DNA from: Megamerina dolium
Taxonomy: Eukaryota > Arthropoda > Insecta > Diptera > Megamerinidae
DNA: 64,000 nt
Assembly: GCA_963854835.1 (NCBI GenBank)
Contig: OY978527.1
Location: forward strand, 33,129,047-33,193,046
Reading direction: 5' to 3'
Shown here: positions 5,347 through 62,350 of the stretch, one piece after another
Numbering within the stretch: position 1 is the stretch's first letter
Layout: each line of letters starts with the position of its first letter
Translations under genes and position numbers: made by a program
Notes under the pieces: model-generated
The model's database searches: none
The model's input: the letters and a program-made list of their open reading frames with translations, nothing else
What the model was told of the DNA's origin: nothing

Positions 5347-6381
5347 TTGGTTGTGTGATTTAAAAAAAAAAAATAAATATGTGGCACTTAAAGCCCCAAA
5401 GGGCTCATTGGCCGAGCTTCTCTTCCATTACTGTTGTGCTTCTTAAATTTGGACAGTATTAGAAGGGACCTACTTATTTTATCCGGTTCCGAACGGCAGA
5501 ACACTTGTGACATCACTTTTTCTGAGCTTTGTCACAGAATTCTTTTAGAAGCTTTTTCATGGGAAGTTGTTACTGTCGGAAGAATTGCCAATTGCTTGCC
5601 GACAGGTGGGTACCATTCGAAAGAAAAATCTTATCGATATTAAATTTGTTATGCATCAGCCGGGGATTGAACCATGACCTGCAGATCAGAAGGCGAACAC
5701 ACTAACCACTGAGCTACGGCACCCACTGTGTTGTGTGAATTAGTAACCGAAATTGTCCGAAATGTTATTTTAAATGTCTATTCACTTGCTGTCAAAATCA
5801 GTCAGAAGATTTCAATTTGGTTGTGCGCATTGAATTGCCAAAAAACAGCATTTGCGGGAAGTTTTGTTAAGTTACTTTTTGGCTACAGCTCTCTATCCAT
5901 TACACAGTATAAGGAGTGGTTAGTGCGCTTCAACAACGGTGATTTCTATATCAAAGACAAAGAACGCTCTGGACAGTCGAAGAAGTTTGAAGATGAGATT
6001 TTGGCGACATTACCAAGATCTGGTCGAACCATTACGGGAGACCTGTACGGACAACAATTGATGCGGTTGAATAGATCAATGATCGAAAAACAGCAGGAAT
6101 ATGCGACCAGACGTGAGTCGGTAATTTTTCATGCTGACAATGAACAGCCACAAATTGCTTTTTCGGTCAAAAACTATCTTGCAAATAGCGGATGGGGAGT
6201 CGGAATCGAAAATTGGTTCGATTCAAAGTTCTTTTGTTTGGGATGGAATCCATAAATTGCCGGATTGATGGCTCACTGTTTCTGATGGACAATACTTTGA
6301 ATGACGTGTTTTTTACAGAATTCATGAAAATAAATGTTTTTTGAACACTAAAAAAGCACGTATACTAATTCGCACACCCAA
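5347..6381 (+). mobile_element. Mariner (DD34D, cecropia/mauritiana-like), with nested SINE
   Basis: Terminal repeats read TTGG.TGTGTGA at 5347 and, inverted, CGCACACCCAA ending at 6381; a TA dinucleotide flanks each side (5345-5346 and 6382-6383). The related element at 50493-51352 has the same end. A SINE (5361-5728) sits inside the left terminal repeat. The transposase frame 5728-6255 contains a KDKERSGQ.KKFED N-terminal motif, then jumps to a C-terminal segment (SMIEKQQEYATRRESVIFHADNE), so the middle with the first catalytic Asp is deleted. The catalytic DNARPH motif is altered to DNEQPQ. It is a non-autonomous relic. Confidence 0.85.
5361..5728 (-). repeat. tRNA-derived SINE, full-length (copy A)
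   Basis: On the minus strand this begins with a tRNA-like head that has an A box (TAGCTCAGTGG) and a B box (GGTTCAATCC), both internal RNA polymerase III promoter elements. A unique body of about 290 bp follows, then an A/T-rich tail after GTGCCACATATTTATTT. Its target duplication, about ttgtgtga.t (5351-5360 and 5731-5740, one mismatch), belongs to the terminal repeat of the surrounding mariner. SINEs encode no protein and depend on a LINE for mobility. The family name is unknown to me. Confidence 0.88.
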
Positions 6382-16736: not shown

Positions 16737-16770
16737 TTTATCTATTATCACTATTATCACTATTTATATA

Positions 16771-17130
16771 AAAAAAAAATAAATATGTGGCACTTAAAGC
16801 CCCAAAGGGCTCATTGGCCGAGCTTCTCTTCCATTACTGTTGTGCGTCTTAAATTTTGGACAGTATTAGAATGGACCTACTTATTTTAGCCGGTTCCGAA
16901 CGGCAGAACACTTGTGACATCACTTTTCCTGAGCTTTGTCACAGAGTTCTTATTAGCAGCTTTTTCATGGCAAGTTGTTAATGGCGGAAGAATTGCCAAT
17001 TGCTTGCCGACAGGTGGGTACCGTTCGAAAGAAAAATCTTTTCGATATTAAATTTGTTATGCATCAGCCGGGTATTGAACCACGACCTACAGATCAGAAG
17101 GGAACACACTAACCACTGAGCTACGGCACC
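16771..17130 (-). repeat. tRNA-derived SINE, full-length (copy D)
   Basis: This is a complete copy with an A/T tail at its left end, the body and the tRNA-like head at its right end. It is bracketed by a perfect 11-bp target duplication CTATTTATATA (16760-16770 and 17131-17141). Proximity to copy C in the same orientation suggests repeated use of the same TA-rich target region. Confidence 0.9.
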
Positions 17131-17141
17131 CTATTTATATA

Positions 17142-24954: not shown

Positions 24955-27900
24955 TGAAGGCCGATGAAGGCCGAGTACTGCCTATTAGACCCCATTAGTG
25001 GTCCTTAGGCTCTGCTCGGTAACTCCTATTCCTTCCTCCACGTGGTGTCGGCTGGAGTACGAGCAACCAAAAAGAAGATCAGGTACCCAACCCTGGTGGG
25101 AAATTTGGTCGTACACTAATAGGAAAGGGGGCACAGCTCACGAGTGACAGTTCTCCATGTTAGGAGCGACTCGTGAATTGTGTATGAACAACGGCAGCTG
25201 GTTGTTCATTAGTGATACTGGCGTGAATGTAGATATACAAAGGAAATGGTAGCATCACAAATCAAATGGCGCTTGAGGAACTCATGGTACGGCATTTGAA
25301 CAGCGAAGTAGAAGGCAAGGAGGGAAACCACTACTTTAAAATAAATCCCTAGAACAGTCACAGTTCACCAATTATGGAAAAGTATGATAAAAAACGGCCC
25401 TCAGTCTCCGGTAATAGGAGGGTGCTAAGAATCCCCGGAGGTAAAACAACTAAAAAATTAAATATTGATACATGGAATGTGAGAAGTTTATATGAAGCAG
25501 GAAAACTGGCCAATGTCATACAAGAAATGAAAAGATTAGAGGTAGACATCTTGGGAGTATGTGAAACGTGGTGGCCAAACAATATTCTGGAAACACAACA
25601 AGCAGACATAGAAATGGAGTAGGCATAATTGTATCGTTACATCTAGCCGACTCGATAACTTAATTCATTCCGCTTTCAGATAGAGTTATGCTACTAAAAT
25701 TCAACTCCAAACCGATTAATCTCAATATAATACAAGCATATGCTCCAACACTGGATAAGCCAGATGCGGAGATAGAACAATTTTACGAGGAAATAAACAC
25801 ACTACTGAAATTAACGAAGCCACATGAAATTACACTAATAATAGGTGATTTTAATGCCAAAGTTGGCAATGAGAATGTAGACGGAATAGTAGGAGCCTTT
25901 GGTTTAGGTACAAGGAATGAAAGAGGGGAACGACTCATACAATTTTGCCTAGAGCAAAATTTCAAAATCACTAATACATGGTACTGCCTACCAAAGAGAC
26001 GCCTATACACCTGAAAATCTCCCAAAGACACAAAGGAAACCATTGTTAGAAATCAGATAGATTACATTCTAGTGAACAAAAGATTTCAATCGTCCAAGGT
26101 TTCAACATATCGGGGCGCTGATGTGTCATCTGACCACAACTTGTTGATAGCTATAATTAAATTACGTTTATCAAAGCCGAAAAAGTCGCAGAAACATAAA
26201 AAAATTTGTCTGGATCTTCTTCAGGATGAGGATATTTGCGGAGCTGTAAAGAAAGAAATAAACAATAATATCAATAAAATCAAAAATATTAAAACTCAAA
26301 CGGAAAGTGTAGAAAGCTACTGGGAACAAACAAAACAAATTTTTAGCGGAATTCCTAATAAATGTTTAAATCGTAGAAAAGATAATAAGAGGCAGGAATG
26401 GATGAATGACAACATCATGAAATTGATGGAAGAAAGACGAAAATACAGAGGAAAAGATGAAGCGAAATATAAACAAATCCACAACCAAATAAGAAAAGAA
26501 ATTAAGGAAGCGAAACACAAGTGGTTAGACAACCAGTGCCTAGAAATTGAAACCTTGCAACTGCTACATAACGACCATGCCCTACATAAAAAAATTAAAG
26601 AAACTGCCAGTGTATACCAGAAACGTACGTATGGAATACTAACAGATGACAGAAACAAAATTATATCAGGACATGACGCCATAAAAAATACTTGGAAAAG
26701 TATATACACCAACTATTTGATAATGAAAACAGAGAAGATTTAAATCGGAACATGACAGGGGACCAACTGAGTGGTCAAAGTATAACCAGAGATGAAGTGT
26801 TAAAAGCAATTACTAATGCAAAAAGTAAAAAATCTGTAGGACCAGATGGTATTCTAGCGGAATTTTTTAAACTCATAGATTACGAAAACATAGATATACT
26901 GACAAATTTATTTAATAAAATTTATGATACAGGCACATATACCAAAGGAATGGTTGCAATCAAGTTTTATACCATTACCAAAAAAAAGCTAAGGTACGTA
27001 AATGCGATGATTACCGGCTAATTAGTCTGATGAGCCACGGCTTAAAAATATTTCTAAAAATACTTAAGGCCCGCTTATTCCTACAATGCGAAGAAGTAAT
27101 GGGCCGTACGCAATTTGGGTTCAAACAAGCTATGGGAACACGCGAAGCCCTGTTCAGCCTACAAGTCCTCATTCAAAACTGCAAAGATGTGCAAAAAGAT
27201 GTGTATGCTGTATGCTTCAGTGATTACAAAAAAGCCTTCGATAAAGTTCTTCATGAAAAGCTGATCAAGATTCTCAAAAATATTGACATAGATGAAAAAG
27301 AGATAAGATGTATTACCAATCTATATTGGAATCAAACCGCGCACTTAAAATTAGAGGAAAATGTGACAAAGGATATAAAAATCAAAAAAGGTGTTCGGCA
27401 AGGATGTATTTTGTCTCCAATGCTCTTCAACATATACTCAGAGTATATACTTGAAGAAGCTATAGCATCTTGCAACAAGGGCATCAAAGTAAACGGTCAG
27501 ATGATAAATAACATAAGATTTGCCGACGACACTACAATAATAGCTGACAATATAGACGATCTTCAACAACTTGTAAAATCTGTAAGTGAAAAAAGTCGGC
27601 AATATGGACTAAGCATCAACAAACAAAAAACTAAATTCATGATTATATCTAAAACTCAGACTAATAACATAGAATTATGTATAGATGACCAGACAATCGA
27701 AAGAGTATCAAGCTTCAAATACTTGGGTTGTTGGCTAACCGACAATTGGCAAAATGACAAAGAAATCCGTTGTCGTATAGAAGCAACTAGAACAGCATTC
27801 TACAAATACAGAAAAGTTCTATGCAACCGAAGTTTGAGCATAAAACTACGAATGCGATACCTAAAGTGTTATGTTTTGTCTGTGTTGTTATATGGTGTTG

Positions 27901-28490
27901 AAGCGTGGACCTTAAAACTTACATTGATGAACAAACTGGAAGCTTTTGAAATGTGGTGCTATCGTCGTATGCTAAAAATTTCATGGACAGATAAAATCAG
28001 CAACAATGAAGTATTACGAACACTCAAAAAAGAAAGAGAATTGCTACAAACGATAAAACGTAGAAAAACGGCATACTTTGGACACATAATGCGAGGACCA
28101 AAGTGTGAACTATTACAACTGACAGTGGAAGGAAAAATAGAAGGCAAAAGAGGAATAGGACGAAAGCAAAAATCATGGTTAAGAAATATTAGAGAATGGA
28201 CAGGATTAACAACAATTGGACAACTGATAGAAGCCGCGCGAAACAGACAAGAATATCAAAGTATAGTACTAAGCCTAAACTAGATCAAAAATGAAATACA
28301 AATATGTGCAATGTAACTAAGTATCATATATGTAACAATAATTTATGTTTTCCTATGTTAAATGTTTAATGTCTCTGAGTAATGTGTATAAACAATATTA
28401 ATATTATAGAACTGTAAAATATTCGAATTGTGATCGCAAACATTCTGTAACAGAATATACAAATAAAGAAGAAGATGAAGAGACTGTTGG
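24955..28490 (+). mobile_element. RTE-like LINE, nearly full length
   Basis: This is a non-LTR retrotransposon with a 5' untranslated leader (24955-25372), an AP endonuclease, a linker, a reverse transcriptase and a 3' end at about 28490 carrying an aataaagaagaagatgaag tail. The layout is that of RTE/Proto-type LINEs with one main ORF. Autonomous mobility would need endonuclease nicking followed by target-primed reverse transcription. This copy carries a few lesions (listed under the ORF) but is by far the best preserved LINE here. No target duplication was found. Confidence 0.85.
25374..28286 (+). pseudogene. LINE endonuclease-reverse transcriptase ORF, several lesions
   Basis: The endonuclease has TWNVRSLYEAGKL (25469 on), ADILG-like and CETWW motifs, GDFNAKVG near 25846, RNQIDYI near 26055 and SDHNL near 26130. 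The reverse transcriptase has KKSVGPDGI, DYKKAFDKV (domain A), RQGCILSPMLFN, the catalytic FADDTTII (27516-27542), YLGCWL and YGVEAW. Lesions are a deletion after 25617 where the frame restarts with NGVGIIV, a TAA near 25661, a Trp-to-stop TGA near 26012, a frameshift near 26695 and another near 26990. The last frame (27030-28283, 417 residues) is uninterrupted through the whole catalytic region. The protein cannot be made in one piece. Confidence 0.88.
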
Positions 28491-29500: not shown

Positions 29501-30640
29501 TTTATTGGATTACAAATCTAATTGGTGAGGTACCGTAAGAAAGAGGTCGACAGAAGTTGCCGCACGAAACTGGAAAGGTCCCTAAGAGGCGAAGATTTTA
29601 AAATTCTGCTCGTAGGAAAACTCTGCATGCCTATCAAAGCGGAAACTCCAGTGAATTGGCTTTGCATAATCAACAAGTGTAGAACAGCTTTTGTCAGGAA
29701 AAATTACGTATTGTGCATTTCTCTGAATATTAAGAGTGCGTTCGACAATGCTATTTTCGAGAGTATATGTGATTGTGCCGGGAAGCATGGTGTAGTTAGA
29801 TTGCTAGTAAATAGATTTCGTTTAATTGTAGCCGAGCGGATTCGAACGATGCATGCAGGATGGTCTACTTGTAACATCTGAAGTAAACAACGGATATCTC
29901 CAGAGTGGCGTGCTGTCTGCTTTACTCTTCTGCAAGGTGATTGATCTTCTGAGCTCGAATAACTACGCGTAAGCCTAAGCGGAAGACAACGTCAAATTGC
30001 TGCAGCCCTTTCGCTTATGAGCGTCTGCAGAAAAGTGCAGCATATAGTCAGTATGATAAAAACTTGATGCGGGGCGAATGTACTATCGGCCAATCCCTCT
30101 AAAATTGGTTTGGTTTTCTTTATCAGTAGGAGAAAACTGATGGTTTCATTCTTCCCATACTCGTAGGAGACACGTTCAGTTATTGGACGTGGTTAAGCAT
30201 CTGGGAATAATACTCTTTTGTAAATCGCTTGACTCTTATATATCTACACTGCTTTATGTTGTGCTAAGATTTTTACTAAAATGTCTGGCCCAGTATTTGA
30301 TGTTGGGGTCTTTGTGGAGGCGTGTAAAGCCCAGCTGTTTTTTGGACTTTGTTCGCCACATGGTCATATTTTCTTCTGCCTTTGAGCAGAGATAACTGCA
30401 GATTGGTAGTCGGCCTGGTAATGGGCCATTTCTTATGGGCTGGTCATATGGAAAGAGTAGGATTAACAAATTATACACTCTCTCCAGCCTATGGGCAGGT
30501 CATAACACTTCTTGTGCATTTCAGTTTTTTAGGTTTTGGCATAGATGTGCTAAGGGGCAATACTCTTGGCTCCTTGGCACCACTTCCGATTTCTTCGTAA
30601 ACCATGCAGATTTAAAACAAATTAAAATGGATCACAAACG
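29501..30640 (+). pseudogene. RNase-H-class LINE, decayed reverse transcriptase and C-terminus
   Basis: Frame 29522-29881 contains NKCRTAFVRKNYVLCISLNIKSAFDN, the LINE reverse transcriptase domain A, followed by HGVVRLLVN. After a frameshift come GYLQSGVLSALLFCKVID (domain B) and a damaged catalytic region (AEDNVKLLQP instead of ADD). At 30390-30600 a C-terminal segment GHFLWAGHMERVGLTN, then CAFQFF..GIDVLRGNTLGSL, equals the zinc-knuckle tail of such elements. The RNase H domain between them is deleted. It is inactive. Confidence 0.75.
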
Positions 30641-31826
30641 CAGTACAATAAACGTATTATGCTTGAGTACTGCACTTATATTGATATCAAACACAAAAAC
30701 TAATGACCTTCTCTTTCCTTTATTCTTCAAAATTTGGAAAATATTATCCAAACTTGTCAATTCGCTTCAGCTTAAAAATCAGACGTAAAAACGGCGGATG
30801 CCTTAGCAAATTCGACGCACCTACGCGCGTATGCATTTGTGTGTGTATATGTGTATGCACTTTGTAACAGCATACATCTGAAGTCCTTCCAAATACGAAC
30901 AACTGGCCCATCAAAGCCATCAGCTACGTCTGTCATAAGATGTCTAATGAGCACATGTCCTTAATTGAGTGTGAATCCTTTAAATATGTAGCATTGCAGA
31001 TGCAAGTCGTTGCGAGTAGAATGATTCCAACAATGTCAATCATTTCATTTGCTTTTCGTTTACATTTGCAACTGTTGCTGTGATTGTTCGCATTTAACAA
31101 ATGTTATGCAATTATCATGAGAAGGCGTTAAATGCGTTACATTGTTAACATGACAACTAACACTTGCAGTATGTTGATAAAACTACACTAGCTCACTCGT
31201 AAGCATGCATCCTTCAAAATAACATAATTTGCAGTTAAGATAAGTATGTGTGTGTGTCGTTCTTGCTGATGGCTTATCAGTATTACATTATGTAATTGGG
31301 GCTATAATAAATTGGTTGTTAATTATTAATTTAAACACAAAGGAACAACCGACCCATTTACTTAAGTTTATCATTTCTGTTTCGGCTATCTAACCGGTTA
31401 TTAAAATTTGATTAGTGTTGCTTAAATACTCAAAATTTATAATTAGAATATAATTAGATTGTAATTCGAATATAGCGAGTGGTTGTGGTATGTCACGTAT
31501 GTCTTTTTTGTCAATTGTCCAATTTTTCAAGGTATGTACCTTTGCAATTTCTATGGCAAGAAATGCAATCAAAATTCATCTATACTGGCTTAATATACGT
31601 TTTTTATGAAGAACCGGCTGTAGAAACATCAAAAAAATATCACCTCAACGGTATTTGGTAGATTTCAACAATTTTAAGGGGTTTTTGAATCCTGAAAGGG
31701 GTGTTATTATTTGTATTGTTTAAAATAATTTTCTAAATTGTTCATTTTGTTACGCATAATTTTAATGCTGACTAAAGCTTCGTCACTAAACGTTTGGATG
31801 TGCTGGTGCACAGTGCCTAAATGTAT
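30641..31826. other. Non-coding stretch
   Basis: I see no gene and no recognisable repeat beyond short TG and CA runs near 30838 and 31248. Confidence 0.4.
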
Positions 31827-32300
31827 GTACGAGGGTTGCCTTTTATATTTTAAAAAGTATAATCTAGTACGTTTTTGTAAAATCTGACATTTCCATTGAA
31901 AAGTTTGACATTTTTTAATATAAAACTATTCAGAAAGTTTTGATATACAAGCACTATTTGTGATATTTACAGTGACTTGAAACATTCATCTCATTTAACT
32001 CGTGAACATTTGCGAGCTATGCTTTTTTACGATTTTCGAAGTGAATTATCTCAACAACAGTGCTTCGATCGTCTTCATGCGGTATTTGGCAATGAAGCAC
32101 CAACCCTCCAGACAATTTATAACTGGTTTAACGAATTCAAGCGTGGTCGCCGTTCGCTTCAGAACGAATTTCCTGAAGGTAAAATTCCAGAAGAAGCAAA
32201 TGGTTTTCCAAAGAAATTGTACAAACAGAGCTATTTTTTCATATTCGTAAATAAATACTTATCTCATCCCAAGATTTTTACGTCATCTCAATAAAAAAAA
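31827..32300 (+). pseudogene. Mariner transposase N-terminal fragment (Mos1-type helix-turn-helix)
   Basis: Frame 31977-32294 begins HSSHLTREHLRAMLFYDFRS and contains SELSQQQCFDRLHAVFGNEA and TIYNWFNEFKRG, the N-terminal helix-turn-helix of a mariner transposase of the SETMAR/Mos1 type. The catalytic domain is absent; after FPEG.IPEE the frame enters unrelated sequence. A mariner-like terminus TA/CGAGGGTTGCC lies at 31828-31840. It is a deleted, inactive copy. Confidence 0.8.
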
Positions 32301-32639
32301 ACCGCAAGTATATTATTTTTTATGTTTTTCCAACAAGGAAAATTAATTTTTAAAATTTTAACCCTTGGTCATTGCCGAAAGAGGTCTCTATACGTACAAA
32401 TGGGCATTATATTTAAAACAGGGATCCAATCGTCTTATTCGTAAATGTCTACTCGTCATTTGGCAATTTATTTTCGTTCAAGTGACATTCCATTTATGTG
32501 TGAGAGTTTATATTTGGTACTTGATGGCACTCCATTTTGTCTCAAAAAACAATTTCCACGTACAGTAAATAGCTGTTTTAAGTCTTGAATTTTGTTCCGT
32601 TGTTGAAGATTCCTCTACGAATTAAATTCAGTTGATGTG

Positions 32640-32960
32640 GAATTACCATCCCATACCACAGTCTAATTGTTGTTATATAGATCAATCATTATCTCTAGTA
32701 TTTTGTACTAAATTCCGATATTTCTAAGTTTCTCTCACTGTAGTCGAATGCTGCTCTAAAATCCACAAAAGAACACGTACTGGGTTGTGAGGCAGAATCA
32801 TTGTCCATCATAGCATAGCCTTTCCTAAAGCGAGCCTGGCATTGATTCTCCACTCAAGAGATTAATCGTTCATTAATTACTCCGGCATCCAGTTTGGCTA
32901 TAAAATTTAGGAGGAAATACATCTGCAATTATTTGCTTCATTTGTGTCTTCTTTTTTTAA
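32640..32960 (-). pseudogene. LINE reverse transcriptase fragment
   Basis: The minus strand at about 32795-32730 reads TCSFVDFRAAFDYSER, which is reverse transcriptase domain A, preceded by a CRFRKGYAMMDNDSAS-type segment and followed by weak downstream homology (KILEIMIDLYNNN in another frame). Both ends are truncated, and the right end abuts the large inverted repeat. Confidence 0.7.
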
Positions 32961-32967
32961 ATCGCAA

Positions 32968-33435
32968 TTTTTTATTTTATATATATACATCTCGAGTGTT
33001 TTTGTACTCTACAATACAAATCGATTTCCATTATGGAACATGTTTAATTAGTGCAATAATAAATTAGTGCCGTTTATATATATCACGAGGTTTCTTGTAA
33101 TAAACAATATAAATACATAAACGTATAAAAGTATATCTCGTGTTTTTTTTTTTCTTTGTACAAAGTGATGTACATAAGAAACAATCAGTTTGCAATTTAC
33201 GTGCATTTCTCTTTCATTTCAATACGGAATTTCTTCCGATAACGAAAATAATTAAATAAATCAAAACTTGATTTAAACATATTCCTTGAGGAATGGTATT
33301 GGCCACCAACGAAAGGCTTAACCATTCAGAATGTGAGAAAAGGTGTGCTGATGCAAATACAACAGCAACAGCAAGTAGCAGCAGCGCTATCATCACATCA
33401 ACCGTAACAATAACAACAACAATTAATCATCAGAA
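32968..33435 (+). repeat. Left arm of 468-bp inverted duplication
   Basis: This arm is the reverse complement of 33841-34308 over its full 468 bp. I count only two mismatches (near 33018 and near 33388) and equal homopolymer lengths. It includes an A/T-rich outer half, a T11 tract (33143-33153) and an inner half encoding a Ser/Thr-rich reading frame on the plus strand. No terminal repeats typical of fold-back transposons were recognised. Such high identity means a recent event or gene conversion between arms. Confidence 0.95.
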
Positions 33436-33840
33436 TTCAGAATTCAGTGTCAATTTTCTGACATGGTGTATTTTATAAACTCGAGGACACGGTTAACGGT
33501 TAACGGTCGAGTGGTTGTTTCTTTGATATTGTGTATGTGAGAGAGATGCCGGTGGGCTCATACCTTGGTTGAGTTGTACCGATGTGATTTTTCTGCGACT
33601 TGAATTACCGACTGCTTCTTGCTTCCTAACAAAATTAAAGTTATTTAAGTTAAATCATTTTTAAATAATAGCATAATAAATAATAATAATTAAAAAACTA
33701 CTTGTATGCGATGTTTTCGCTGTTGTTGATGTTTCGCTGGTAGCGTCATTTTTCGCCTTCATCTTGTCCACTCTCAAACTATTGCTATCGTCACTTGACG
33801 ACAAATCTTGCTGTTGTTGTCGGAGATTTTCTTCCATTTG
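33436..33840. other. 405-bp spacer of the inverted duplication, with possible exon
   Basis: The spacer is unique sequence. Its right part, read on the minus strand from about 33850 to 33700, encodes SSEQMEENLRQQQQDL, then an SSSDDSNSL segment and a Lys/Thr/Ser-rich stretch, directly after an in-frame stop and a possible acceptor (ttaatcatcag). This looks like a low-complexity exon of a nuclear or regulatory protein, but I cannot name it and no donor was settled. The left part (33480-33640) has no recognisable content. Confidence 0.45.
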
Positions 33841-34308
33841 TTCTGATGATTAATTGTTGTTGTTATTGTTACGGTTGATGTGATGATAGTGCTGCTGCTA
33901 CTTGCTGTTGCTGTTGTATTTGCATCAGCACACCTTTTCTCACATTCTGAATGGTTAAGCCTTTCGTTGGTGGCCAATACCATTCCTCAAGGAATATGTT
34001 TAAATCAAGTTTTGATTTATTTAATTATTTTCGTTATCGGAAGAAATTCCGTATTGAAATGAAAGAGAAATGCACGTAAATTGCAAACTGATTGTTTCTT
34101 ATGTACATCACTTTGTACAAAGAAAAAAAAAAACACGAGATATACTTTTATACGTTTATGTATTTATATTGTTTATTACAAGAAACCTCGTGATATATAT
34201 AAACGGCACTAATTTATTATTGCACTAATTAAACATGTTCCATAATGGAAATCGATGTGTATTGTAGAGTACAAAAACACTCGAGATGTATATATATAAA
34301 ATAAAAAA
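33841..34308 (-). repeat. Right arm of 468-bp inverted duplication
   Basis: This is the mirror of 32968-33435. The duplicated inner frame reads on the minus strand MVLATNERLNHSECEKRCAD followed by a Thr/Ser-rich stretch, and it runs on into the spacer in this copy, so the right arm is probably the ancestral one. Confidence 0.95.
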
Positions 34309-34720
34309 TGTAAAGATAAAAATGCGCGCACTGTTCGTGTCGAGAAAAAATACAAGTAGAGGAAAAAAAAGAACAAGAATATACGAACGACTGCTGACTG
34401 ATCAAGTCAGAGTTGCATTCGCTTTCTATAAAGGTGGCACCAGACAATGCGCGTGACATAATTTTCTGGCGTAGACATTCCGCCCCCCTTGCAGGATTAC
34501 TGCAATGGAGACGCAAAGCCTACACCAGAGACGTAGAGGGAGGGAGAGAGATGAAGGGAGATAGAGGGAGAGAAATAGAGAAATACAAAATTAATTTTGT
34601 TAATTAAACAAAATTAAAATTAATGTAGAACTAATTGAATTAAATTAATATAATCAATTGAGAAAAAAAAAAGAAATTACAAGTTGATTAATTAATTATA
34701 GAATTATAGATATAAAAAAT
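34309..34720. other. Unassigned stretch with purine-rich tract
   Basis: A GA-rich tract at about 34535-34585 (gagggagggagagag) is the only notable feature, and no gene is seen. Confidence 0.4.
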
Positions 34721-34732
34721 TTTAAAATCATA

Positions 34733-35101
34733 AAAAAATAAAAAATAAATATGTGGCACTTAAAGCCCCAAAGGGCTCATTGGCCGAGCTTCTCTTCCAT
34801 TACTGTTGTGCGTCTTAAATTTGGACAGTATTAGAAGGGACCTACTTATTTTAGCCGGTTCCGAACGGCAGAACACTTGTGACATCACTTTTTCTGAGCT
34901 TTGTCACAGAGTTCTTTAAGAAGATTTTGCATGGCAAGTTGTTACTGTCGGAGGAATTGCCAATTGCTTGTCGACAGGTGGGTACCATTCGAAAGAAAAA
35001 TCTTATCGATATTAAATTTGTTATGCATCAGCCAGGGATTGAACCACGACCTACAGATCAGAAGGCGAACACACTAACCACTGAGCTACGGCACCCACAT
35101 G
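34733..35101 (-). repeat. tRNA-derived SINE, full-length and clean (copy E)
   Basis: This is a complete copy with tRNA-like head, body and tail, bracketed by a perfect 12-bp target duplication TTTAAAATCATA (34721-34732 and 35102-35113). It is the best reference copy for defining the family: about 355 bp without the tail. Confidence 0.92.
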
Positions 35102-35113
35102 TTTAAAATCATA

Positions 35114-35776
35114 TATGTATAACCAAAAAAAAAAGAAAAAGAAGAAGCAATCGGAGGCAAAATATCAGCGGTGTTCATTAAAAAAAGAGAAAGAAAAAAA
35201 AACCTTTGGGGAGGGATCATCTACGTGGTGGATATTTGAGGGTCCGGTGGATGGCCATTTGGATGCCTGGGAGCACCGAAATCGACCGTGAGTCGATTCG
35301 GTACAAGGCCGTGAGCCGCTCCCTAGGCTGGCAGAATTGCCAATTCTGTGGCTGGCTGAGTTGCCAGAACCACAGAAAATCCAGGACCATATTAAATGAA
35401 TTTAAAAAAAATGTGTTTTTTTTTTTATCTTCCTCCTCTCAACCAAAAAATGATGAGACGGGGCGGGATTGCCGGTGAGCTGCTACGTTGTGGTGGATGA
35501 GGTTTGTTGTTGTTGTGCCTGCCGTGGTGTTACGTGGCCGTCGATTGGTTTGGGTATACCATATGTGTACACGATAAAGATAACTAACACACACTTTTTC
35601 GAATTTGTCCAAAATACAATATTTATTAAATTTACGCGGATTATAATTAATATAAATTAATTTTATTTAACTTAATTTATCGTAAAGAAAGCAAGAGATA
35701 AAACAACTCACGCACTGTTCAATTTGGGAGAGAGATCGATAATAGAATAAAATATAAAGAAGTATAAATAAAAAAA
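35114..35776. other. Unassigned stretch
   Basis: It contains A-rich tracts and a G+C-richer block at 35205-35400 with an inverted pair of gaattgccaattc-like sequences. A phrase gtcgattcggtac here recurs at about 7146, so the block may belong to an undefined repeat. No gene is supported. Confidence 0.35.
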
Positions 35777-36692
35777 TCTCCTTACAGTCGGCTGGGGTCG
35801 ACCAAATTATACCCTGCATATGTAGATTTATATATAAAAAGTTTACTCGAATATTCATCTTTTTCTTTTATTTCCACTTTTTTAAAAACAATTTTTGCAT
35901 ATACTACTAATTTACACCCGAAATATGGTTGACTTTGACGAAGTACTTTGTATGTTATGAGAGTTCTAAAAGCGATAATTTAAAGGAGGTTTTTAAGATA
36001 ATTCCGAGACTTAGTATGGGAGCTATATAAAAAGTTGGCGTGGCTTACCTCTTTCTTGTAAATCCAATTAATATTTCAATATTAATCCACACCTTAAATT
36101 TGTTTGTCCTACGTTGAATAGTTCGTAATTTATAGCGGATAAAATTTTTTTACATTTCCTCAACTTTGTATGGGAGCCCCAATAAGAAGTGGGCGTGGTA
36201 CACTGATTTTCTGCCAGATTATTTCCGACTATGATATTAATTTAAGTGTCAATTATGGTTATTCTGGACAGAAGAGTAGTATAATATAGCTCTATGTGCC
36301 AAATATTGTTGTCCCAAGTGGTATATTATGTGAGTTATAGGAAGTTAAAGATTTTGAAAATCCGAGGTTAGTCGCTTTGAATGCTTGGTGTGGGCGTGGT
36401 TATTGACCGATCATGCCCAATATCAATCCCCTCCGTACCCTTGTATCATAGGTTACTTGTGCGAAATTTCGTCGAAATAGCTCAATATTTACTCAAGTTA
36501 TCGTGCGAACCAGCCAGGTGACAGACAGATGGACGGACGGACGGACGGACATCGTTAAATCGAAAATTTAAGCGACGCTGATCACGAATATATTTCTATA
36601 TCTATATCTCCGGAGATTCCTTCAAGTGATCACAAACATCTGACCGAAATGAATATACCTTGCATATTGCATTATGCAGGGTATAAAAAGGA
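35777..36692 (+). repeat. Long interspersed non-coding repeat (GGGCGTGG type), complete copy
   Basis: It begins CTTACAGTCGGCTGGGG and a TATACCCTGCATAT segment, contains four phrases with a (G)GGCGTGG core (about 36022, 36188, 36391 and weaker ones) spaced 150-200 bp, then CAGACAGATGGACGGACGG repeats, TCGTTAAATCGAAAA, CTCCGGAGATTCCTTC, and ends TTGCATATTGCATTATGCAGGGTATAAAAAG, which can form a hairpin with the start-like sequence. The copy at 63575 is closely similar. No ORF is present. The repeated internal modules suggest a regulatory or non-autonomous element. The family is unknown to me. Confidence 0.8.
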
Positions 36693-37271
36693 CTTGGGAT
36701 AGGGAAAAAAATGAGAGAGTGGGAGTGGTAGGAGTGGAGAACTGGCATAATTGGTGATGCCAGATCGCCCACACGCTCCTAATCACAATAACAGTGCGCG
36801 AGGTGTTCTTGATACTTGATACACATACTACTTATAAGTATTCGGATATCGGTTACTAATATCAAATAATATTCATACTAAGTAATCAATTTTTTAAAAA
36901 GTTTCAATAGTACGTGCATAGGTAGAGGCACATATGTACTTACTTATTCGAATAGAATATGCATGTGTGTGTGCGATTTATTAATTTCTTATATATTATA
37001 TTAATCTTATTACCTCTGACTAATAATAAGTCAAATTTATCTATTCAGAATAGTGTAATGTAGTAACATTTCATTTGGAATATATTAAAAATGCCTACAT
37101 ATAAGTGCATAAACTGTATATACAAAATCAATAACAAATCCTTCGTTTATGTCTTATATTTTTTCCTTCGCCTACAAACAAAATTAACATGACAATCTAT
37201 TAAGGTTTGGGTGGCATTTAATTTTCTCTGTATACTGTATTTTAGAATTTAGATGTAATCTATTCACATAT
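36693..37271. other. Intergenic AT-rich stretch downstream of the host gene
   Basis: I see no recognisable feature. It should contain the 3' untranslated region and polyadenylation signal of the minus-strand gene; AT-rich sequence at 37090-37270 is suitable, but I could not settle a single signal. Confidence 0.4.
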
Positions 37272-38559
37272 TTAATATTTCAATTTTAATAGCTCATATA
37301 AAGGTATCTCTTGTTTGGTTGTGGTTTTGGCCTTTTGCTTGAAGAAACCTTTTTCTACTAAGAATTTTGGTTTCTCTACATTCGGATGTGTCCGGTAGAA
37401 TTCTATTAGCGCTTTGGTTGACCTCAAATGACCAATACCCTTGAAAAGTTTCTGCCCGGAGAGCAGCTCATCGGGGAATACAGTAGTTATACGTTCATCA
37501 CTTGCAGTTGGCATCCAAGGACGATCCTTATACGGTATAGTGTGTCCAAAGGCTACAGTGTGCAATTTCTTAGGAACATTGTGCAAACGGGCCTCAATAT
37601 ATTTCTCATATTTCAATTCGATGGCCATCTGTTGGATAAAAATGATGTATTTTATATAAAGCGCATGCGACGCATATATAACGTAGAATATATGTAGATA
37701 ATTTACTTCAGGTAAATTCCATTTATTTGCAACGGTTTGTGCAATCGCTTTCACTTCTTTGGGTTCGGTTTGTATCGATGCTAAAAGCTTTCTGTCACCC
37801 TCAATTGAGAATAACGATTTGAGTTGTGCTACTGACATATCCGCTTCATGATTGCTACCCAATGCATTTATCCATTTTGTGAAGCGTTCTGCAGACTAAT
37901 GGAATTATGAAAGGTAAGCCATGTTGGTTGTGTGTATATTTTCAAAGCTCACCGCATCCATTAGCTGCTCAGCTTGTTCATCCAAAGTCTTTTCCCAAAT
38001 GTTACGTTCCATTTGATAGATTTTTGAATCCCATTTAACGCGTTCTTTTCGCGGTTTGCATATGAATGTGGAGCACCAATTTATGCTCTTTTTAGCCTTA
38101 CGCAAATGTTCCATTGGTGTATCTAATTTAAGCTCAAAATGTGGGAATTCGTTTTCCAAACGTTCAATTTCCGAACATGTGCTCTCATTGAAGACACCCT
38201 GAACGGCATAGTAAATAAATAAATAAATAAATACGTACGTATTGAATGACAGCAATTTTGCTTACCTTTTTCTTTTCCTTTTTCTCCGATTCGTCTTCAT
38301 CGGTATCATCTGCTATGCCAAATGATTTTGGTGTCTCTACACTTGATTCATCAATGTAAACGTGACGATCGTAATCATCGAATTCGTAGGGCATTATTTT
38401 AGCAACACGGCGTCGCAAATTCTCCGGTAACGTCACAGATAAATCACAATTTTTCACATGTTCCTTCCGGCTCTTTAGAAATGCCGCCAACTCTATTTCG
38501 TGTATTACATGCTTCCAGTAATCGCTGTTACTCTTGAAACGCATTGATGTTCTGGACAT
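37272..38559 (-). CDS. Four-exon protein-coding gene, function unknown
   Basis: The exons on the minus strand are 38559-38266, 38198-37953, 37895-37707 and 37628-37272. The introns are 67, 57 and 78 bp, each GT-AG and each in phase 0, with donors GTAAGC, GTGAGC and GTAAAT. Together they encode 361 residues with no internal stop. I chose the ATG at 38559 (context taaaATGtcc); an in-frame ATG at 38571 would add four residues. The N-terminus is basic (MSRTSMRFKSNSDYWKHVI). Residues 80-98 are acidic then Lys-rich (TDEDESEKKEKKK). The middle has Trp/Cys-containing SINWCSTFICKPRKERVKW and a charged helix, and the C-terminus is basic. There is no signal peptide and no membrane segment. I do not recognise the family; a cytoplasmic or axonemal role would be a guess. 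It is the only intact host-like gene in the window. Confidence 0.9.
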
Positions 38560-38599
38560 TTTAGCACACATTTCACTTTGCTATCCGTTGTTGTTCGAA

Positions 38600-59160: not shown

Positions 59161-60384
<1,224 letters not shown>

Positions 60385-62258: not shown

Positions 62259-62262
<4 letters not shown>
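60985..62262 (+). pseudogene. RNase-H-class LINE, 3' half
   Basis: Frame 61011-61256 has the YSAVVRPILFYGVIVWWESL segment that follows the reverse transcriptase. Frame 61334-61993 is an uninterrupted 219-residue RNase H domain with all catalytic motifs visible: CTDGSKLEG, FQAEIMAIKE, YTDSQAAIKS and GHRDIPGNCEADELAR. Frame 61990-62250 adds the zinc knuckle FCRICQDEEEEESVHHFLCRC. RNase H converts the RNA-DNA hybrid during reverse transcription in I/R1/LOA-type LINEs. A one-base overlap frameshift at 61990 and an earlier one near 61260 break the ORF. The 3' end runs into a (TA)n tract. The reverse transcriptase core is absent. Confidence 0.88.

Positions 62263-62350
<88 letters not shown>

What the first reader, a model, noticed from the sequence alone, without database searches (positions are those of the whole stretch)
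32968..34308. 468-bp inverted duplication with about 99.6% identity around a 405-bp spacer
Both arms are exactly 468 bp with only two mismatches that I could find, including an equal T11/A11 tract. None of the ends shows recognisable transposon termini. The age of the surrounding elements contrasts with the freshness of this palindrome. It could be a recent fold-back (template switch) event, a fold-back transposon, or an arm pair kept alike by gene conversion. Transcribed, it would make a long hairpin that could feed small-RNA production.
Basis: seen in the sequence. Interest (0 to 1): 0.85.

Follow-up and report, generated by a model that had tools for sequence, protein, structure and literature searches.

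The report
Young inverted copy of gene leader
In what looks like an insect genome, a 469-base piece resembling the leader of a gene has been copied backwards just downstream, so a transcript across it could fold into a long hairpin; such copies are a known kind of event and can become RNA-silencing loci, but no activity was shown here.

Summary
Arms 32967-33435 and 33841-34309 are 469 bp, gap-free, with two mismatches, around a 405-bp spacer. It is the most identical duplicate pair in the window; the next one over 300 bp is 96.4%.

A fold-back transposon is unlikely: no exact 2-12-bp target-site duplication at the pair or either arm, no tandem repeats inside, no other copy in the window at E up to 1e-6. 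The genome could not be searched. The right arm and spacer read like the 5' end of a minus-strand gene: TATA and initiator outside the arm, the arm as leader, an ATG three bases beyond it, an open exon, a 12%-GC GT..AG intron, a second open exon. The left arm is then most simply an inverted copy of the leader placed in the next intron by template switching or copy-type break repair. Against the gene model: the predicted peptide has no database relative.

The minus strand folds into one stem of arm length. Whether it yields siRNA, is edited, or does nothing is untested. Ordinary in kind, clean as an example.

The parts
32967..33435 (.). Left arm; inferred to be the inverted copy, lying in the presumed intron 2
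   Evidence: Alignment and self-BLAST; direction of copying is inference
33841..34309 (-). Right arm; inferred to be the source, most of the 5' leader of a minus-strand gene
   Evidence: Alignment; flanked by TATA/initiator outside and ATG inside
33436..33840 (-). 405-bp spacer holding the predicted exon 1, intron 1, exon 2 and start of intron 2
34423..34430 (-). TATA-like element TATAGAAA, 31 bases before the initiator A
   Evidence: one mismatch to the consensus used
34396..34401 (-). Initiator-like TCAGTC, A at 34399 = inferred transcription start
   Evidence: such a TATA+initiator pair is expected 1.7 times per strand and seen at 4 minus-strand and 2 plus-strand sites
33702..33837 (-). Predicted exon 1 coding part (ATG at 33837, 45 codons plus one base), GC 0.419
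   Evidence: no homologue
33626..33701 (-). Predicted intron 1, 76 bp, GT..AG, GC 0.118; the donor is weak
33564..33625 (-). Predicted exon 2, 62 bp, open in the frame needed and in one other, GC 0.435; donor AAG|GTATGA follows
32971..32976 (-). AATAAA at the far end of the left arm: a possible poly(A) signal for a self-contained hairpin transcript; one of five AATAAA in 32000-34400, so weak

Best explanation
A recent local templated inverted duplication. The source is the right arm, most of the 5' leader of a minus-strand gene that starts at about 34399. During replication or break repair, synthesis switched to the opposite strand, copied 469 bases of the leader, and rejoined about 0.4 kb downstream in the gene's second intron, giving leader - exon 1 - exon 2 - inverted leader. 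Shown: the arms, their identity, the spacer, the lack of exact target-site duplications. Inferred: the gene model, the direction of copying, the copying mechanism. Consequence, inferred: the primary transcript folds into a stem of arm length with exons 1 and 2 in its loop. Most likely the inverted arm leaves with intron 2, so any effect is on nuclear RNA (editing, slower splicing). If the transcript keeps the left arm or ends at it, it would be a hairpin-RNA precursor whose 21-mers match the gene's own leader.
For: 469 bp with 2 mismatches. Promoter-like pair outside and ATG inside the right arm. GC 0.419 / 0.118 / 0.435 over exon 1 / intron 1 / exon 2. A scan for ATG-exon, AT-rich short intron, second exon with AG|GT found this site alone on both strands (three acceptor variants), none in two reversed controls; thresholds were set after seeing the site. 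No TATA+initiator pair on the left arm's side. No exact target-site duplication. The last six bases of the left arm at its inner end recur within the next 14, true of 1039 of 63980 window positions, compatible with microhomology. RNA of 32967-34309 minus: one stem, -845 kcal/mol, no shuffle control at this length.
Against: The 66-residue peptide has no relative: none sharing three words, none among solved structures, 29 candidates but none at E up to 10 with a padded query, though that collection holds insect proteins. First donor weak; exon 2 open in two frames; no third exon recognised among stop-to-stop frames of 75 codons or more, a list that misses short exons. Presumed leader holds three AATAAA and one ATTAAA. 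The TATA+initiator pair is not rare. No empty allele or relative was seen, so direction is inferred.
Confidence: 0.55

Rival explanations
1. Staggered-break micro-inversion: the 405-bp spacer was inverted and the 469 bp beside it were duplicated in inverted order by fill-in of staggered breaks.
For: It gives the same anatomy; papers on Drosophila inversions with these terms were seen as a listing only.
Against: It would make the present order promoter-like pair, leader, ATG a product of the inversion, with the ATG three bases from a breakpoint by coincidence. No ancestor was available.
Confidence: 0.1
2. Fold-back element or MITE-like transposon with 469-bp terminal inverted repeats.
For: Long near-identical inverted arms around a short middle; the window is rich in transposon pieces.
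Against: No exact 2-12-bp target-site duplication; no other copy in the window at E up to 1e-6; no tandem repeats in the arms; no match of the window's frames of 60 codons or more from outside 30500-37000 to arms or spacer; spacer looks genic.
Confidence: 0.1
3. An older inverted pair kept alike by arm-to-arm gene conversion.
For: High identity over a full arm with sharp ends fits conversion as well as youth.
Against: No positive sign; two mismatches carry no information on it.
Confidence: 0.1
4. Assembly or library artefact (fold-back read or chimeric clone).
For: Very high identity; no reads could be seen. A GAATTC spans the inner junction of the left arm.
Against: Both arms end in different sequence on both sides, the spacer is 405 bp, the arms differ at two sites. 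Fold-back reads normally give arms that meet and run to the read end (recalled). The source copy has no GAATTC at that place, so simple EcoRI ligation does not explain it.
Confidence: 0.07

Closest known systems
Drosophila hairpin-RNA (hpRNA) loci, e.g. D. simulans hp58 and the hpRNA at ballchen (PMC10317233 section 12)
   Same: Young inverted repeat made from part of a gene, close to that gene; the ballchen case is described as a partial duplication of the gene's 5' region.
   Different: Here the inverted copy lies inside the presumed transcription unit of the source gene with the coding start in the loop; no siRNA or Dicer-2 dependence known.
Template-switch mutations that create hairpins (PMC8794818, passages)
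   Same: Local copying from the opposite strand gives an inverted copy and a perfect stem in one step.
   Different: The passages concern stems of a few to tens of bases; here 469 bp with a 405-bp spacer.
Templated insertions of Drosophila pol theta end joining (PMC2895639, passages)
   Same: Insertion copied from nearby sequence, microhomology at junctions.
   Different: Average insertion 7.6 bp in wild type at an I-SceI break; 469 bp is far longer.
Fold-back elements and MITEs (recalled)
   Same: Long inverted arms and a short middle.
   Different: No exact target-site duplication, no second copy in the window, genic-looking middle.

Membership tests
hpRNA locus | Long, well-paired inverted-repeat arms | tested here: met
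   469 bp, 2 mismatches; one stem in the fold
hpRNA locus | One transcript across both arms | tested here: inconclusive
   Predicted start and exons only; an AATAAA at the left arm's end, one of five in the stretch scanned
hpRNA locus | 21-nt siRNAs from both arms, Dicer-2 dependent | not testable with these tools
   No small-RNA data
Fold-back transposon or MITE | Target-site duplication | tested here: not met
   No exact match of 2-12 bp flanking the pair or either arm
Fold-back transposon or MITE | Many copies in the genome | tested here: inconclusive
   No other copy in the 64-kb window; genome search did not complete
Fold-back transposon (FB type) | Tandem repeats within the arms (recalled) | tested here: not met
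   No tandem array reported within 32967-34309 (score 50 or more)
Template-switch inverted duplication | Source on the opposite strand nearby, no target-site duplication | tested here: met
Template-switch inverted duplication | Microhomology at the switch points | tested here: inconclusive
   Inner junction: six-base recurrence, 1.6% of window positions; outer junction A/T-rich, no clear sign; ancestral site unknown
Staggered-break micro-inversion | Spacer inverted relative to the ancestor | not testable with these tools
   No ancestor or relative; the present order of promoter-like pair, leader and ATG argues against

The most novel reading that the evidence does not exclude
The gene has become its own silencer: an inverted copy of its leader within its own transcription unit, with a poly(A) signal at its end, turns a share of its transcripts into a hairpin whose siRNAs cut the gene's own mRNA and that of any allele without the duplication. 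This would be an hpRNA caught at birth, a natural counterpart of a hairpin silencing construct, with the coding start in its loop.
Probability: 0.12. Interest if true: 0.65.

Novelty: new member of a known kind. Interest (0 to 1): 0.36.

Why it matters
Where hairpin-RNA loci come from is called 'an ongoing conundrum' in PMC10317233 (section 12). A 99.6% inverted copy of a gene's leader inside the same gene would be a very early step and is directly testable by PCR in several individuals and by small-RNA reads. If nothing is transcribed across it, it is simply a recent local copying error of a known kind.

Tried and rejected
Fold-back transposon: no exact target-site duplication, no second copy in the window, no tandem repeats within. 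EcoRI ligation scar: a GAATTC spans the inner junction but the source copy lacks it there. Rfam at gathering scores: one match in the window, not at the arms; no tRNA. An exact 27-base pattern of the arm in viral and prokaryote contigs: 0 matches each, as expected for an insect-like window. Predicted 66-residue peptide: no relative. Frames of 60 or more codons from outside 30500-37000, compared with that region: no match in arms or spacer. Pol theta end joining as sole mechanism: its insertions are far shorter. Literature: six searches answered; their listings showed no inverted leader copy inside its own gene, but I saw only listings, passages of five papers (PMC10317233, PMC8794818, PMC4710571, PMC2895639, PMC4345017) and one named section (PMC10317233 section 12), so this is no claim of absence from print.

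Full report
Observation. The inverted pair is real. The left arm aligned with the reverse complement of the right gives 32967-33435 against 34309-33841: 469 columns, no gap, two mismatches, 405 bp between the arms. Self-BLAST agrees; the repeat finder extends the pair loosely to 482 nt at 98%. The next most identical pairs longer than 300 bp are 96.4%, 95.1% and 93.5%, so this is the freshest duplicate in the window, though the gap is one of degree. Two differences in 469 is 0.43%, 95% interval 0.05-1.5%. With a Drosophila-like mutation rate (recalled, about 3.5e-9 per generation) that is very roughly 0.07 to 2.2 million generations, if gene conversion has not reset it and if such a rate applies.

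Source. The window looks like an insect genome. For the LINE reverse transcriptase at 26928-28280, 120 of 973 hits were listed; the seven rows that name an organism name insects (Pararge, Diaphorina, Apolygus, Lasius), at about 49-54% identity, while the top hit, unnamed, is 61%. There is a Mos1-type helix-turn-helix and a drz-agam-1 ribozyme. Species and order are unknown.

Anatomy. On the minus strand the order is: TATAGAAA with its first base at 34430; TCAGTC with its A at 34399, 31 bases on; 90 bases of leader; the right arm, 34309-33841; three bases; an ATG at 33837; 45 open codons and one base; a 76-bp GT..AG intron of GC 0.118; a 62-bp exon open in the needed frame; a donor AAG|GTATGA; 128 bp of presumed intron; the left arm. 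Exon GC is 0.419 and 0.435. A scan of both strands for this arrangement found only this site, in three acceptor variants, and none in two reversed controls. The thresholds were set after seeing the site, so this shows rarity, not significance. The TATA+initiator pair alone is weak: 1.7 expected per strand, 4 minus and 2 plus sites observed. A GA-rich tract lies further upstream at 34534-34580.

Against the gene model. The predicted peptide has no relative: none sharing three words, none among solved structures, and with an X-padded query 29 candidates but none at E up to 10. The same collection does hold insect proteins. The first donor is weak by eye, exon 2 is open in two frames, and I recognised no third exon among frames of 75 codons or more, a list that misses short exons. 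The presumed leader holds three AATAAA and one ATTAAA. The gene could be fast-evolving, non-coding or mispredicted.

Direction. The right arm fits its flanks (promoter-like pair outside, ATG inside), and no TATA+initiator pair was found on the left arm's side. So the left arm is most simply the copy. This is inference; an empty allele would prove it.

Origin. No exact target-site duplication of 2-12 bp flanks the pair or either arm; the arms match nothing else in the window at E up to 1e-6; no tandem array lies within them. At the inner junction the last six bases of the left arm recur within 14 bases, as at 1039 of 63980 positions: compatible with microhomology, not proof. Template switching is reported to create hairpins, in the passages I saw of a few to tens of bases (PMC8794818). 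Drosophila pol theta insertions average 7.6 bp in wild type at an I-SceI break (PMC2895639, passages). A longer copying process, such as a fork template switch or break repair with strand invasion, is more likely here. A staggered-break micro-inversion gives the same anatomy (listing only) but would need the present leader-ATG order to be a coincidence.

What it may do. Folded as RNA, the minus strand of 32967-34309 forms one stem of arm length, -845 kcal/mol (the tool gives no shuffle control at this length). If intron 2 is spliced normally, the mRNA keeps one arm and only nuclear RNA is double-stranded, where ADAR or the MLE helicase could act; [quoted passage not shown] If the transcript ends at the left arm, where one of five AATAAA in the stretch lies, it would be a complete hpRNA precursor. 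Young hpRNAs of D. [quoted passage not shown] In Anopheles a 21-nt class was noted in adult testes (PMC4345017, passages). This is resemblance; the defining tests, siRNAs and Dicer dependence, could not be made.

Verdict. A real and recent inverted duplication, probably local and single, though copy number in the genome was not tested. It is a clean example of a known kind of event. Its interest rests on the possibility that it is an hpRNA at birth, which in its bold form I rate at about one in eight.

Noticed in passing
25013-25128 (+) and 25353-28280 (+): A drz-agam-1 HDV-like ribozyme (48.7 bits, gathering 37) lies just upstream of LINE-like frames, the last of which matches RVT_1: a ribozyme at the likely 5' end of a LINE.
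   Followed up: partly
5362-5726, 16767-17131, 34734-35098: A roughly 365-bp repeat family, copies 93-96% identical; the third copy sits about 330 bp upstream of the inferred start.
   Followed up: no
37275-38580 (-): Neighbouring minus-strand open frames of 118-207 codons that look like exons of a host gene; no Pfam match at E up to 0.01.
   Followed up: partly
31944-32291 (+): Mos1-type helix-turn-helix (PF17906, E 2.2e-12) of a mariner remnant.
   Followed up: no
59743-59843 and 62261-62350: Two long AT dinucleotide arrays, 50.5 and 45 units, 100% and 97% matches.
   Followed up: no
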